From an uncultured Treponema sp. (GTDB lineage Bacteria; Spirochaetota; Spirochaetia; Treponematales; Treponemataceae): a stretch of 55,088 bases of DNA. The stretch lies in contig CAMOWQ010000002.1 of assembly GCA_946628495.1 (NCBI GenBank), forward strand, positions 1 to 55,088, in the 5' to 3' direction. The translations under genes and the position numbers were made by a program. The notes under the pieces are model-generated. The model was not told the DNA's origin and did no database searches. It worked only from the letters and a program-made list of their open reading frames with translations. This document shows positions 23,017 through 28,142 of the stretch, one piece after another; position 1 is the stretch's first letter, and each line of letters starts with the position of its first letter.

Positions 23017-23637
23017 CTATTTTTTTTCCTGATTCAAATACCAGCCGGAACGTTTCTTTACAAATTCAAATGCTTCTTTTATTGCAGGCGTAAGCTGGTC
23101 TTTTGTAAGCTTATGATGTCCGCCTTCAACAAAAAATATGTTGTCTTTGTACATTGTAAAATCTGAATACATTTGCGAAAAGAATGCACTGTAAGAAAAA
23201 AGTTCATCATCAGTTCCAAAAATTCCGCAGGTTGTATTTTTCATGGCAGGCGTTTTTTCGCCATGATTATAAGACTTTATACCGTAGGTTTTTGCTTCAA
23301 GAGCAAACAGTTCCTTTACAACATTTTCCGGCATAGATTCATCCAATTTAGGAATTTCTATAGAAGGAGCCATACACGGATTGATAACAATTCTAAACGG
23401 AGTTGCTTTACGGCTTAGTACATAAAATGCGCCAAAAGAACTTCCTATCAAAGTTCCAATTTTCTTTTCCTGAATAATACTTTCAATTTTGTCCTGAGTT
23501 CCCTGAACATCAAACAAATCAAAATCTTCTGCATAAATTGTGCAATCTGTCAGGATTTCCCGTAGATTTTTACACGTTGTAGATTCTTTACTACCACCAA
23601 GTCCGTGTACATACAAAATGTTGTGAATTTCTGCCAT
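23017..23637 (-). CDS. YqiA/UPF0227-like alpha/beta hydrolase
   Basis: 206-aa cytoplasmic esterase-like protein. It opens with NILYVHGLGGSKES (oxyanion-hole HG), has the nucleophile elbow GSSFGAFY with Ser near residue 69, the acid in FGTDDELF near residue 138, and a late His in EGGHHKLT near residue 172. This order matches YqiA-type short esterases with no lid. The substrate is unknown. Its ATG overlaps the stop of the upstream gene (TAATG), so the two are translationally coupled. Confidence 0.8.
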   Translation of the reverse strand: MAEIHNILYVHGLGGSKESTTCKNLREILTDCTIYAEDFDLFDVQGTQDKIESIIQEKKIGTLIGSSFGAFYVLSRKATPFRIVINPCMAPSIEIPKLDESMPENVVKELFALEAKTYGIKSYNHGEKTPAMKNTTCGIFGTDDELFSYSAFFSQMYSDFTMYKDNIFFVEGGHHKLTKDQLTPAIKEAFEFVKKRSGWYLNQEKK

Positions 23638-24500
23638 TATTTACCTCCAATTCGTCTTTGTGCAAAATACCGACTTAAAGTACTGTTTTCGTCTTTTAAC
23701 TGTTCGTGCATCCATTCCCTTACAGTTTCAATTTCTTTTGAAGTAAAACAAGTTTCTTCATCCTCATTAGAATTCCAGAATTTTTCTATTTCGCGAGCAT
23801 CGTCTTCCTGTTTATAATCCGAAGGAAAAAGGCAAAATTCTTCCTTATCCTTTTTAAGCACAATGTATTCCATCCGGCCTAATTCCGCTGTAACCCACGA
23901 CTGAACATCAGAAATATCTACAGGAAGTCCTGTCTGACTGCGTGGAAGACTAAGCGGTTTTTCCTTCTTTTCGCGTTTCACAGTTTTTATAAAAACTTTC
24001 TTTCGCTGTTCAACAAAATAAATCGCTTCCTGCAAACTATTTGCTGCATCAGTTTTATCGGTCAGATTTTTTTCATCAGAAATTCCCGCTTTATATACAT
24101 TGCGGATTCGGCCATCACCAAAAATTTTCCCATCAAAATTCTTCACGATTTCTAGAAATTCATTATGATGAATATTATCACATTTTTTCCATTCTACATG
24201 ATTCGCAAAATTAAAAAGGTAATAGATAAGACTATCATAAAAATGATACACATCCGACAAATCTGACGAAACACTTGCTGTCATAACAACATCTAAAATC
24301 GTGCATTTTTTACCGTCCACCAAAACAGCCGCAACACCACTTGTATTCCAGCGTTCACCGGTAAAATAACGGATATCTAATACTTTCTGCGTGCCCTCAG
24401 ACAAATTCGAAATCAGATTTTTCACAACCTTTGAATGTTCCGAAAACAACGTCTTTTCTTCATCCGTCGATTCCTTAAAATGAAAACTTAAATCAATCAT
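23637..24500 (-). CDS. Hypothetical protein coupled to the alpha/beta hydrolase
   Basis: I do not recognise this 287-aa protein. It is soluble and rich in charged residues, with no signal peptide or TM helix. A Trp/Tyr-rich block near residue 80 (HFYDSLIYYLFNFANHVEW) precedes a Lys/Arg-rich stretch (FIKTVKREKKEKPLSL) around residue 170, and an acidic C-terminal third contains EKFWNSNEDEETCF. The stop codon shares its final A with the start of the hydrolase gene, which suggests the two proteins act together or in fixed ratio. Codon use looks like its neighbours. Confidence 0.6.
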   Translation of the reverse strand: MIDLSFHFKESTDEEKTLFSEHSKVVKNLISNLSEGTQKVLDIRYFTGERWNTSGVAAVLVDGKKCTILDVVMTASVSSDLSDVYHFYDSLIYYLFNFANHVEWKKCDNIHHNEFLEIVKNFDGKIFGDGRIRNVYKAGISDEKNLTDKTDAANSLQEAIYFVEQRKKVFIKTVKREKKEKPLSLPRSQTGLPVDISDVQSWVTAELGRMEYIVLKKDKEEFCLFPSDYKQEDDAREIEKFWNSNEDEETCFTSKEIETVREWMHEQLKDENSTLSRYFAQRRIGGK

Positions 24501-24641: not shown

Positions 24642-25817
24642 ATGAAAGAACTCGAACTCAAATATGGATGTAATCCGAATCAGAAACCTGCAAGGGTTTT
24701 TATGGAAAATGGCGATCTCCCAATAACAGTTGTAAATGGAAGACCGGGATATATCAACCTTCTTGATGCTTTGAATGGCTGGCAGCTTGTTAAGGAATTA
24801 AAGGAAGCTACAGGACTTCCTGCTGCTACTTCTTTTAAGCATGTTTCTCCTGCTGGTGCTGCTGTTGGACTTCCTCTTTCAGATACGTTGAAGCAGATTT
24901 ATTTTACTGATAACGTTGAACTTACACCGCTTGCCTGTGCTTATGCTCGTGCCCGCGGTGCAGACCGAATGAGTTCATTCGGTGATTTTATTTCTTTGAG
25001 TGATGAATGTGATGAAGCAACTGCACTTTTGATTAAGAAAGAAGTTTCTGATGGTATTATCGCTCCTGGCTATTCTGCAAAAGCCCTTGAGATTTTGAAG
25101 GCTAAGAAGGGCGGAAATTATTGTGTAATTCAGATTGACCCTTCATACGTTCCGGCAGAGCTTGAACGCAAACAGGTTTTCGGCGTAACTTTTGAACAGG
25201 GACACAACTTCCTTAAGATTGATGAAAAATCTGCTCTTTCTAACATCGTAACTAAAAACAAAACTTTAAGCGAAGATGATAAACGCAATCTTATTATTTC
25301 TCTGATTGTTTTGAAATACACTCAGTCTAACAGCGTTTGTTTTGTAAAAGACGGTCAGGCTATTGGTATTGGTGCCGGACAGCAGAGCCGTGTTCACTGT
25401 ACCCGTCTTGCAGGACAGAAGGCTGATAACTGGTGGTTGCGACAGTCTCCGCAGGTTCTTGGCTTACAGTTTGTAGACGGAATTAAACGCGCAGACCGCG
25501 ATAACGCAATTGATGTTTACATTGGTGAAGAATATATGGACGTTCTTGCAGAAGGCAAATGGCAGAATATTTTCAAGGTAAAACCGGAAGTATTCACACG
25601 CGAAGCAAAGGCAGAATGGATTTCTAAAAATACAAACGTTGCACTTGGTTCAGATGCATTCTTCCCATTCGGCGACAACATCGACCGCGCAAAGAAGTCT
25701 GGTGTAACTGTTATTGCTCAGCCGGGCGGATCTGTTCGCGACGACCTCGTAATCGAGGCAGCCGACGGATATGGCATGGTTATGTGCTTTAATGGTATTA
25801 GACTTTTCCACCATTAA
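24642..25817 (+). CDS. purH: AICAR transformylase without an IMP cyclohydrolase domain
   Basis: 391-aa phosphoribosylaminoimidazolecarboxamide formyltransferase that adds the last carbon in purine synthesis. It begins directly with the transformylase part (MKELELKYGCNPNQKPARV). It carries the catalytic region SFKHVSPAGAAVG near residue 65, then SNSVCFVKDGQAIGIGAGQQ near 228, RVHCTRLAGQKADNWWLRQ, and the end SDAFFPFGDNIDRAKKSGV. The roughly 200-aa MGS-like cyclohydrolase domain of standard PurH is absent, so IMP closure must be encoded elsewhere. Such stand-alone enzymes occur in some clostridia and spirochaetes. No Shine-Dalgarno; TACTAT/TATATT at 24627-24638 is a possible -10, 3-9 nt before the ATG. 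Confidence 0.9.
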   Translation: MKELELKYGCNPNQKPARVFMENGDLPITVVNGRPGYINLLDALNGWQLVKELKEATGLPAATSFKHVSPAGAAVGLPLSDTLKQIYFTDNVELTPLACAYARARGADRMSSFGDFISLSDECDEATALLIKKEVSDGIIAPGYSAKALEILKAKKGGNYCVIQIDPSYVPAELERKQVFGVTFEQGHNFLKIDEKSALSNIVTKNKTLSEDDKRNLIISLIVLKYTQSNSVCFVKDGQAIGIGAGQQSRVHCTRLAGQKADNWWLRQSPQVLGLQFVDGIKRADRDNAIDVYIGEEYMDVLAEGKWQNIFKVKPEVFTREAKAEWISKNTNVALGSDAFFPFGDNIDRAKKSGVTVIAQPGGSVRDDLVIEAADGYGMVMCFNGIRLFHH

Positions 25818-25938: not shown

Positions 25939-25947
25939 ACTTGTTAG

Positions 25948-25984
25948 AAACTTCCGTTCTTTTTTTTGAACGGAAGTTTTTTTT
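25948..25984 (+). terminator. Strong rho-independent terminator
   Basis: AAACTTCCGTTC (25948-25959) and GAACGGAAGTTT (25968-25979) form a perfect 12-bp stem around a loop of eight T, and the T-run continues to 25984. It ends transcription from purH or from the structured stretch before it. Confidence 0.85.
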
Positions 25985-26116: not shown

Positions 26117-26159
26117 GAATTTTTGAATTAAATTCAAACAATTTCCAATTCGAAAATTC
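26117..26159. promoter_or_regulatory. Operator-like inverted repeat upstream of the macro-domain operon
   Basis: GAATTTTTGAATT (26117-26129) and AATTCGAAAATTC (26147-26159) are complementary at 12 of 13 positions with a 17-nt spacer. The right arm ends 18 bp before the -35 box. The spacing suits an activator or a dimeric repressor site, but no regulator gene adjoins. Confidence 0.4.
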
Positions 26160-26177
26160 AAATTCTGCCTGAAAATT

Positions 26178-26206
26178 TTGACGATGCATCATCTTGTTCC
26201 TATATT
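26178..26206 (+). promoter_or_regulatory. Sigma-70 promoter of the macro-domain / clamp-like operon
   Basis: TTGACG (26178-26183) and TATATT (26201-26206) with 17-bp spacing. A start near 26213 would leave a 15-nt leader containing the Shine-Dalgarno GAGG at 26218-26221. One of the best -35 boxes in the window. Confidence 0.65.
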
Positions 26207-26228
26207 AAAAATATAGCGAGGAATTCTT

Positions 26229-26777
26229 ATGACAATTTATCTTTTATGCCGGAATCTGGAAATGTTTCTTGAATGGAAACATCAGTTTGCAGAATGTGAT
26301 GATGTTGATGTTGTGATGGATGATTTTGCGCATTTTATGGATACTCATAAAGTGCAGTGTGTGGTTTCGCCGGCCAATTCTTATGGCTGCATGGATGGCG
26401 GTTATGATGCTGCAATCACCGGGTATTTTGGCACAGCCTTAATGAAAAATGTTCAAAAATATATTCTGGAAAATTATTACGGCGAACAGCCTGTAGGTAC
26501 AAGTTTTATTATTGATATTCCCGAAACTGACAAAAAATTAATTCATACACCCACAATGCGCATTCCTTCAAAAATCAGGGAGCCTGAAATTGTTTATCAG
26601 TGTATGCGCACAACTTTAATGGAAGCACTAAAAAATAATATAGAAAGCATAGTTATTCCAGCCTTTGGCGGTGCAACAGGCATGGTGCCCTACAGAAACA
26701 TTGCAAAACTGATGAAAATGGGTTACGACCAGATTACAAATCCTCCCACAGAAATATTTAATTATGATATAATATAA
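26229..26777 (+). CDS. Macro-domain protein (ADP-ribose-binding type)
   Basis: 182-aa protein made of little more than a macro domain. Macro domains bind ADP-ribose or remove it from proteins or nucleic acids; some act as antitoxins. Seen: VVSPANSYGCMDGGYDAAI near residue 43, the usual N-x2-N...GGx(D)xAI loop that grips ADP-ribose, and IPAFGGATGMVPYR near residue 143, a late substrate loop. GAGG lies 7 nt before the ATG. It is followed after 15 bp by the clamp-like gene and shares its promoter. No ART or toxin gene adjoins, so an ADP-ribose function is from family only. Confidence 0.8.
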   Translation: MTIYLLCRNLEMFLEWKHQFAECDDVDVVMDDFAHFMDTHKVQCVVSPANSYGCMDGGYDAAITGYFGTALMKNVQKYILENYYGEQPVGTSFIIDIPETDKKLIHTPTMRIPSKIREPEIVYQCMRTTLMEALKNNIESIVIPAFGGATGMVPYRNIAKLMKMGYDQITNPPTEIFNYDII

Positions 26778-26792
26778 AAAAGAGGCAATTTT

Positions 26793-28142
26793 ATGACTAA
26801 TGAAGAAGCAATGTCGTATTGGAAGGGCGGTGACCCTTCTGAAGTTTTGAGATTTACGAATCCTTATGATTACGAGGGATGTATTGTTGGCGTTTCTACG
26901 GACGGGCGTGCAGTTTATGATATTTTTGAAGTGTTTGCCTATGCCCAGGAACAGGAAGAAGCCAGTGATGATGATGAAAATTTCGTGCATCAAATTTTAG
27001 ATATGATAAATCATGATTTGAGACTTTATAATCCTAACGATAAAATTCCAGTCTTTTTCCGCCCCGATGTTGAAGATATTGATGAAAATCTTTGTATCGA
27101 TGACAGCCCTTATGGAAATTTTGAAGATTGCGTTTTAGGTGCTGATTTTAGGGAAGAACGATATGTTTTTTCTCTGTCCAAAATGGTAGATGAACTTGTA
27201 ATATCTCACGAAATGACAAAAGAAGAAGCCGTAAACTATGTTTATTCCCTAAAAGATGCAGGCTGCGTTATTAATGGCGTTTGTAACTATGTAATTGTCG
27301 ATGATTTGTATGAGCATATTTCCTTAAGCGTGGAAACTAATCAGACATATAATAGTTTTTATTCACCTGATTTTGAAAAAGACTGTTTTGAATTTAGCGG
27401 CAAGGATTTCCTGTCTGTACTTGATTTAGCTAGAATTATGGAATTCAACACACCACATCATGAAGCAACATCACATATTCAGATAATAAAAAAAGAAGAT
27501 GATGATTCAAAGGTTTTTGTTAATGCTACTGATGGAAGAATGTTATGCAGGCTGATTTTAATGCCACTTAATAAATCAACACTTGCAAAACCAATCTATT
27601 TGTCTTTGCATTTTTTATGTTATTTTTTGACTACAAAGAAAATCTCAGAAACCGATACAGTAAAGATATTTGAAGGCAAAGGTTATTTGTTTTTGAAAGT
27701 GAATGATGAGCTCTATAGCACGATTTTCAAAGATATCATCTATGCTAAAATCGAAAAGGTAATTCCAACAAATCAGCCCTATAAGGCAGAATTTAGTGCA
27801 AAAGAATTAAAAACTTTTATTGATTCAATTTATAATGACTATAATAATCTTGAAAACTATGAAGATGAAAATGGAAAAGTCATTACAGACTACCATGGAA
27901 TTGATTGCACCTTTGAAAATGGCCAGCTTTCATTACACTTTGTAAAAAGCGAAAAATCTATTCCATGTACATATAACTGCGAAGAAGGATTCCATTTCAA
28001 AATAGGTGCACGATATGCTGCATTATTAACTAGTTTCTATAAGGAAAAAATTGTCTTTGAAATGAAGGGTGCTGAATCAGCGTTTAAAATTGATATGGAT
28101 AATCTTATGACGGTCTTTATGCCTATGCGTCTGGATGTCTAA
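26793..28142 (+). CDS. Beta-sliding-clamp-like protein with an extra N-terminal domain
   Basis: 449 aa. Residues about 195-449 resemble DnaN domains II-III: NATDGRMLCRLIL near 243 (compare ATDGHRLA), AKIEKVIPTN near 316 (compare Y-x-K/R-VIP), a final-domain strand pattern with HFKIGARYAALLTSF near 408, and the C-terminus FMPMRLDV, almost the E. coli beta ending MPMRL. The first 190 residues are unrecognised. They contain GCIVGVSTDGRAVYDIFEV near residue 30, an Asp/Glu cluster (EEASDDDENF), and a repeat-like TKEEAVNYVYSLKDAGCV near 150 that recalls the opening NEEAMSYW. The replicative dnaN is not in this window. GAGG precedes the ATG. Role unknown; it could bind DNA or clamp-binding partners, or be a clamp decoy. 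Confidence 0.6.
   Translation: MTNEEAMSYWKGGDPSEVLRFTNPYDYEGCIVGVSTDGRAVYDIFEVFAYAQEQEEASDDDENFVHQILDMINHDLRLYNPNDKIPVFFRPDVEDIDENLCIDDSPYGNFEDCVLGADFREERYVFSLSKMVDELVISHEMTKEEAVNYVYSLKDAGCVINGVCNYVIVDDLYEHISLSVETNQTYNSFYSPDFEKDCFEFSGKDFLSVLDLARIMEFNTPHHEATSHIQIIKKEDDDSKVFVNATDGRMLCRLILMPLNKSTLAKPIYLSLHFLCYFLTTKKISETDTVKIFEGKGYLFLKVNDELYSTIFKDIIYAKIEKVIPTNQPYKAEFSAKELKTFIDSIYNDYNNLENYEDENGKVITDYHGIDCTFENGQLSLHFVKSEKSIPCTYNCEEGFHFKIGARYAALLTSFYKEKIVFEMKGAESAFKIDMDNLMTVFMPMRLDV

What the first reader, a model, noticed from the sequence alone, without database searches (positions are those of the whole stretch)
26117..28142. Macro-domain protein paired with a divergent beta-clamp-like protein
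A 182-aa macro protein and a 449-aa protein with DnaN-like domains II-III (ending MPMRLDV) plus an unknown N-terminal domain form one operon, with a good promoter and an operator-like repeat. ADP-ribose handling coupled to a clamp-like module would fit a DNA-damage or phage-response role. I know of no described system of this make-up.
Basis: partly seen in the sequence, partly recalled or inferred. Interest (0 to 1): 0.6.

Follow-up and report, generated by a model that had tools for sequence, protein, structure and literature searches.

The report
Cut-down DNA clamp with phage-like head
A gut Treponema carries, beside an ADP-ribose-processing (macro) gene, a protein made of two thirds of the bacterial DNA sliding clamp joined to two copies of a small module otherwise seen in phages; the clamp resemblance is real and unusual, but the two genes are not a fixed pair.

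Summary
ORF 26229-26777 is a macro-domain protein. ORF 26793-28142 ends in beta-clamp (DnaN) domains II-III: profile comparison with 28 DnaN scores 93.4 against at most 32.8 in 200 shuffles, and a model of residues 190-449 (alignment included DnaN rows) matches bacterial beta clamps (Z about 21, clamp residues 119-377). Clamp domain I is missing. The 'unknown' N-terminus (1-185) is, at least in its first half, a small module found as 84-103-aa phage proteins; the second half is a weaker second copy.

Interpretation is only partly supported. Among 200 genomes of the genus, 9 carry the macro gene (one a remnant) and 2 the clamp fusion. In the second fusion carrier the macro gene lies 2.65 kb away on the other strand, behind unrelated genes; the other seven macro carriers have no clamp fusion. 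So there is loose linkage, not a conserved operon. The macro gene's most frequent neighbour is another unknown family (window 23637-24500).

Best reading: a DnaN-derived, domain-I-less clamp mimic keeping about half of the partner-binding cleft and losing conserved residues of the DNA-side loop and helix; it probably binds clamp-binding-motif proteins instead of acting as the replicative clamp. Function inferred. New variant of a known kind.

The parts
25946..25981 (+). intrinsic terminator-like hairpin with T run, downstream of the AICAR-transformylase-like gene
   Evidence: 14-pair stem, T tail
26117..26159 (.). inverted repeat GAATTTTTGAATT-N17-AATTCGAAAATTC (possible operator)
   Evidence: 12/13 paired, 2 of 200 shuffles as good
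26178..26206 (+). sigma-70-like promoter match TTGACG-17-TATATT
   Evidence: 10/12, but matches are common in this region
26229..26777 (+). macro-domain protein, 182 aa, closest solved relative 1njr (yeast 32.1 kDa protein); SPANSYG..DGGYD and LIHTPTMR motifs
26793..27350 (+). N-terminal part (about residues 1-186) of the 449-aa protein: a phage-type 'GVxTDGRxVYDY' module (copy 1, about 20-90) and a diverged second copy (about 107-178); stands where clamp domain I would be
27360..28142 (+). C-terminal part (residues 190-449): DnaN domains II and III, ending VFMPMRLDV
23637..24500 (-). 287-aa protein of unknown family that recurs near macro genes of this type in G014, next to a macro remnant in G243, and (partial, 31%) in G059

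Best explanation
The 449-aa protein is a diverged DnaN derivative that has lost clamp domain I and carries instead a phage-type module in one clear and one weak copy. It no longer serves as the replicative clamp (the genome has ordinary dnaN genes) and most likely acts off the DNA as a clamp mimic: through the partly retained cleft between domains II and III it binds proteins with clamp-binding motifs (polymerases, clamp loader, repair proteins) and titrates or redirects them, with the N-terminal module giving a second contact. The macro protein next to it is an ADP-ribose-processing enzyme, probably co-transcribed here, but a mobile, optional neighbour and not a fixed partner. Shown by computation: fold and homology of the C-terminus, absence of domain I, phage relatives of the first N-terminal repeat, partial retention of cleft residues, loss of conserved residues of the RYF loop and K198, non-conserved adjacency. 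Inferred: clamp-binding-motif binding, lack of a ring on DNA, biological role.
For: hhalign of the C-terminus against DnaN far above shuffles; N-terminus against DnaN only 15 columns at probability 5. Ortholog hits phrog_947 at 6.1e-9 over residues 285-436. AlphaFold model of residues 190-449: pLDDT 86.7, pTM 0.83; the 50 best PDB matches listed are bacterial beta clamps, E down to 4.7e-14, Z up to 21.7 over clamp residues 119-377. Of the cleft residues listed in PMC11139829, T172, G174, L177, V247, V360, M362, P363, M364 and R365 (E. coli numbering) are kept in the window protein; 8 of 14 strongly conserved cleft columns match against 19 of 66 other conserved columns (p=0.045; relative in G245 7/14 against 13/66, p=0.025). 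Lost: R152, Y153, F154 and K198, which are constant or nearly so in spirochaete DnaN, and N320, Y323 of subsite II. The segment aligned to the I272/L273 dimer-interface stretch carries an insertion in one protein and a deletion in the other. Ordinary dnaN found twice in the assembly. First N-terminal repeat against phage module: probability 97, E 3.6e-11.
Against: Only two full-length members are known, so conservation statistics are thin and the p values modest; the cleft is only half kept (R176, N320, Y323 lost). The model alignment contained DnaN sequences, so its fold match is not independent of the homology; the unbiased two-sequence model was poor (pLDDT 37.8). A ring of another make-up (for example a PCNA-like trimer) is not excluded. 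Which lost residues contact DNA is recalled, not tested. No binding or expression data.
Confidence: 0.45

Rival explanations
1. It is a working auxiliary sliding clamp: three copies of the two clamp domains form a six-domain ring, as in PCNA, with the N-terminal modules hanging outside, used by a repair or mobile-element polymerase.
For: Two clamp domains per chain is the PCNA layout, and beta domains II-III align with PCNA (PMC8357120). From memory, E. coli makes a shorter damage-induced DnaN form, beta*, of the same two domains, reported to assemble trimer-like; the papers were not in the library.
Against: The constant R152 and F154, the near-constant Y153 and the constant basic K198 are replaced; the interface stretch around I272/L273 is rebuilt differently in the two proteins. 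No polymerase gene was recognised next to it.
Confidence: 0.25
2. Macro protein and clamp fusion form one functional system (ADP-ribosylation control of replication, a damage or phage response).
For: Same strand, 15 bp apart. In the only other fusion carrier the macro gene is 2.65 kb away although only 9 of 200 genomes have it.
Against: Opposite strands and unrelated genes between in that genome; seven macro carriers lack the fusion; another gene family neighbours the macro gene more often. No ART partner found.
Confidence: 0.12
3. A mobile-element remnant: a phage- or plasmid-borne clamp derivative captured by the chromosome, with a function specific to the element (host replisome takeover or superinfection exclusion).
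For: N-terminal module is phage-type; rare, patchy distribution (2 of 200 genus genomes; no further hit among 393 genomes of the phylum).
Against: No match to the fusion in phage or plasmid records; no phage genes recognised around it; the C-terminus shares a cysteine that is constant in the spirochaete DnaN set but absent from the P. aeruginosa clamp, which points to a spirochaete dnaN origin.
Confidence: 0.15

Closest known systems
Bacterial beta sliding clamp (DnaN)
   Same: Domains II and III end to end, including the TDG, VIP and C-terminal MPMR motifs and predicted fold
   Different: No domain I; extra N-terminal module; conserved RYF loop and K198 residues lost; not in the dnaA-dnaN-recF locus; 16-22% identity to spirochaete DnaN over this part
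E. coli beta* (short damage-induced form of DnaN; from memory, not found in the library)
   Same: Domains II-III only, as a separate product from the normal clamp
   Different: beta* comes from inside dnaN itself; this is a separate, strongly diverged gene with an added module
PCNA
   Same: Two clamp domains per chain (PMC8357120)
   Different: Sequence is DnaN-like, best PDB matches are beta clamps; ring formation untested
Phage 84-103-aa 'GVTTDGRVVYDYDKMVEEL' proteins (IMG/VR L068-L071; weak link to phrog_13182 through L021)
   Same: The module in the first N-terminal repeat (probability 97)
   Different: Mostly stand-alone in phages; here fused to a clamp
Macro proteins of the 1njr kind (yeast 32.1 kDa protein; by memory the ADP-ribose-1''-phosphatase YMR087W) and Gifsy-1/SEN phage macro proteins
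   Same: SPxNSYG..xGGxD motif; D60 and H106 align with D90 and H145 of 1njr; 39% identity to Gifsy-1
   Different: Activity not tested
DarTG
   Same: DarG also has a macro domain (weak hit)
   Different: No DarT neighbour; far below the DarG cut-off

Membership tests
DnaN beta clamp | clamp domains II and III | tested here: met
DnaN beta clamp | clamp domain I (three domains per chain) | tested here: not met
   N-terminal profile against DnaN aligns 15 columns at probability 5.1; it matches a phage module instead
DnaN beta clamp | match above the curated family cut-off | tested here: not met
   no Pfam or NCBIfam family for the window protein; best for the relative is PF02768 at 0.097
DnaN beta clamp | dimeric ring around DNA | not testable with these tools
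   needs protein
DnaN beta clamp | partner-binding cleft residues | tested here: inconclusive
   8 of 14 conserved cleft columns kept, subsite II N320/Y323 lost
Macro domain proteins | PF01661 above gathering score | tested here: met
   55.7 bits against cut-off 22
Macro domain proteins | ADP-ribose binding or hydrolysis | not testable with these tools
   motif D60/H106 present, activity unknown
DarTG toxin-antitoxin | adjacent DarT ADP-ribosyltransferase | tested here: not met
   neighbour 449-aa gene is clamp-like; no ART family in either gene
DarTG toxin-antitoxin | DarG model above cut-off | tested here: not met
   13.5 bits against 250
A conserved macro/clamp two-gene system | adjacency conserved in other genomes | tested here: not met
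   0 of 8 other macro carriers adjacent; one within 2.65 kb

The most novel reading that the evidence does not exclude
A chromosomal clamp mimic, built from DnaN domains II-III and a phage-type module, works with an ADP-ribose hydrolase to control replisome partners under ADP-ribosylation stress or phage attack: a system with no described counterpart.
Probability: 0.1. Interest if true: 0.75.

Novelty: new variant of a known kind. Interest (0 to 1): 0.45.

Why it matters
Bacterial clamps are described as three-domain proteins. A natural, separately encoded two-domain version with part of its partner-binding cleft kept would be a ready-made test of what domain I is for, and possibly a natural regulator or inhibitor of clamp traffic, acting at a site that is also a drug target. 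The small phage module has no assigned function, and its fusion to a clamp is the first hint I have that it may act at the replisome.

Tried and rejected
Direct searches of the 449-aa protein in phages, plasmids and PDB found no relative, and the single-sequence scans of viral and genome contigs found none. The two-sequence AlphaFold model of the full protein was too poor to use; a full-length alignment with DnaN rows was misaligned in the N-terminal half and dropped. The idea that the N-terminus is a worn-down domain I was tested and rejected. Association of this macro type with KptA (12 of 196 genomes; 2 of the macro carriers) or with DUF3990 ART-clan proteins (127 of 186 genomes) gave no useful signal; the window's own genome showed neither. 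DarTG membership rejected. No Rfam hit in the region. Literature searches for a macro/clamp pairing found none. The G022 hit to the N-terminus (E 2.9e-4) was taken as chance: no comparable ORF is seen there.

Full report
What is there. The window is one whole contig (G000:C2) of a metagenome assembly (2.57 Mb, 82% complete), by its relatives a Treponema; the record with the second copy of the fusion is titled uncultured Treponema sp.. ORF 26229-26777 encodes a 182-aa macro protein and ORF 26793-28142 a 449-aa protein, 15 bp apart on the same strand. Upstream lie a terminator, an inverted repeat and a promoter-like site of modest weight; downstream is a convergent gene that reads as a GGDEF/EAL-type protein.

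The clamp claim. The 449-aa protein has no Pfam or NCBIfam match. Searching 200 genomes of the genus with its C-terminus found one ortholog (G245, 437 aa, 47% identity) and, at 1.6e-4, the genuine DnaN of G243 sitting between dnaA and recF. A profile of the two C-termini against 28 spirochaete DnaN gives probability 97.9 and score 93.4; 200 column shuffles reach at most 32.8, the reversed profile 13.1. The alignment is co-linear with DnaN 127-375 up to the terminal MPM. The ortholog hits the phage clamp family phrog_947 at 6.1e-9. A model of residues 190-449 on an alignment with DnaN rows has pLDDT 86.7 and pTM 0.83, and its PDB matches are bacterial beta clamps over residues 119-377, Z up to 21.7. 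Because DnaN rows went into the alignment, the model illustrates rather than independently proves the fold; the statistics carry the claim.

What replaces domain I. Residues 1-185 do not resemble DnaN. They match, without a clamp attached, the end of a 336-aa protein in G014 and the end of a 211-aa protein in a 195-kb viral contig. That led to 84-103-aa phage proteins GVTTDGRVVYDYDKMVEEL..EEAxEFIxYNT. The first repeat matches this module at probability 97; the second repeat only at 60, so a tandem duplication is likely but not proven. In phage contigs the module's neighbours include what look by eye like a replicative-helicase-like protein, a ClpA-type ATPase and a KptA-like protein; no function is assigned.

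What the sequence says about function. Cleft residues named in a recent review (PMC11139829) are partly kept: T172, G174, L177, V247, V360, M362, P363, M364, R365, whereas R152, R176, N320 and Y323 are lost. The retention exceeds that of other conserved columns by a modest margin in both proteins (p 0.01-0.045, not independent). R152, Y153, F154 and K198, constant or nearly constant in spirochaete DnaN, are replaced; that this loop and helix face DNA in the ordinary clamp is my own knowledge. The stretch holding I272/L273, whose mutation gives a monomeric E. coli clamp (PMC11139829), carries an insertion in one protein and a deletion in the other. I therefore favour a non-ring partner-binding clamp mimic over a working clamp, at moderate confidence. 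A cysteine invariant in the DnaN rows and in both fusions but not in P. aeruginosa suggests descent from a spirochaete dnaN; a broad tree was not made.

Is there a pair? The macro gene occurs in 9 of 200 genus genomes (one, G243, apparently a remnant), the fusion in 2, and in no further one of 393 genomes drawn from the phylum at E 1e-9. In G245 both are within 3 kb but on opposite strands with unrelated genes between. A rough estimate for such proximity by chance is about 1 in 10,000 (0.045 times 6 kb/3 Mb; own arithmetic), so some linkage, perhaps a shared insertion region, is likely; an operon is not conserved. The macro gene's surroundings change from genome to genome; a 98%-identical 116-aa-plus-macro cassette sits in different flanks in G224 and G245, which points to transfer. 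Its most recurrent neighbour is the family of window ORF 23637-24500 (G014, G243, and partially G059).

The macro protein. It matches 1njr over the SPxNSYG..xGGxD motif with D60 and H106 aligned to D90 and H145; that these are catalytic in the yeast phosphatase is from memory and was not confirmed in the library. Relatives occur in Gifsy-1 and other phages, where some records label them tail proteins.

Verdict. A real and unusual protein, a new variant of the beta clamp; the macro coupling is unproven and mostly unsupported.

Noticed in passing
G000 contigs C17 and C120 (L001, L002): The assembly holds two different dnaA-dnaN-recF loci (DnaN 52% identical), so the bin probably includes a second Treponema.
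   Followed up: partly
window 23637-24500: A 287-aa protein without any family match recurs beside macro genes of this type in G014 and G243 (52% identity) and partially in G059; a better candidate partner of the macro gene than the clamp fusion.
   Followed up: partly
L035:364-1344 and L037:15262-16260: A 116-aa gene plus macro gene, 98% identical between two genomes but with different flanks on one side: recent transfer.
   Followed up: partly
L014:7186-9559: In G059 the macro gene lies near a DUF3990 (ADP-ribosyltransferase clan) gene and a small partner; DUF3990 is common in the genus (127 of 186), so no association is shown.
   Followed up: partly
L068:1459-3085: A phage contig has the GVTTDGRVVYDY module 0.85 kb upstream of a protein that looks by eye like an RNA 2'-phosphotransferase (KptA).
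   Followed up: no
L036:10091-10222: G243 keeps only a fragment of the macro gene (residues 131-174, 80% identity) in front of the 155-aa and 299-aa genes: an apparent remnant.
   Followed up: no
window 24642-25817: A separate 391-aa AICAR-transformylase-like gene (PF01808), upstream of the terminator.
   Followed up: no
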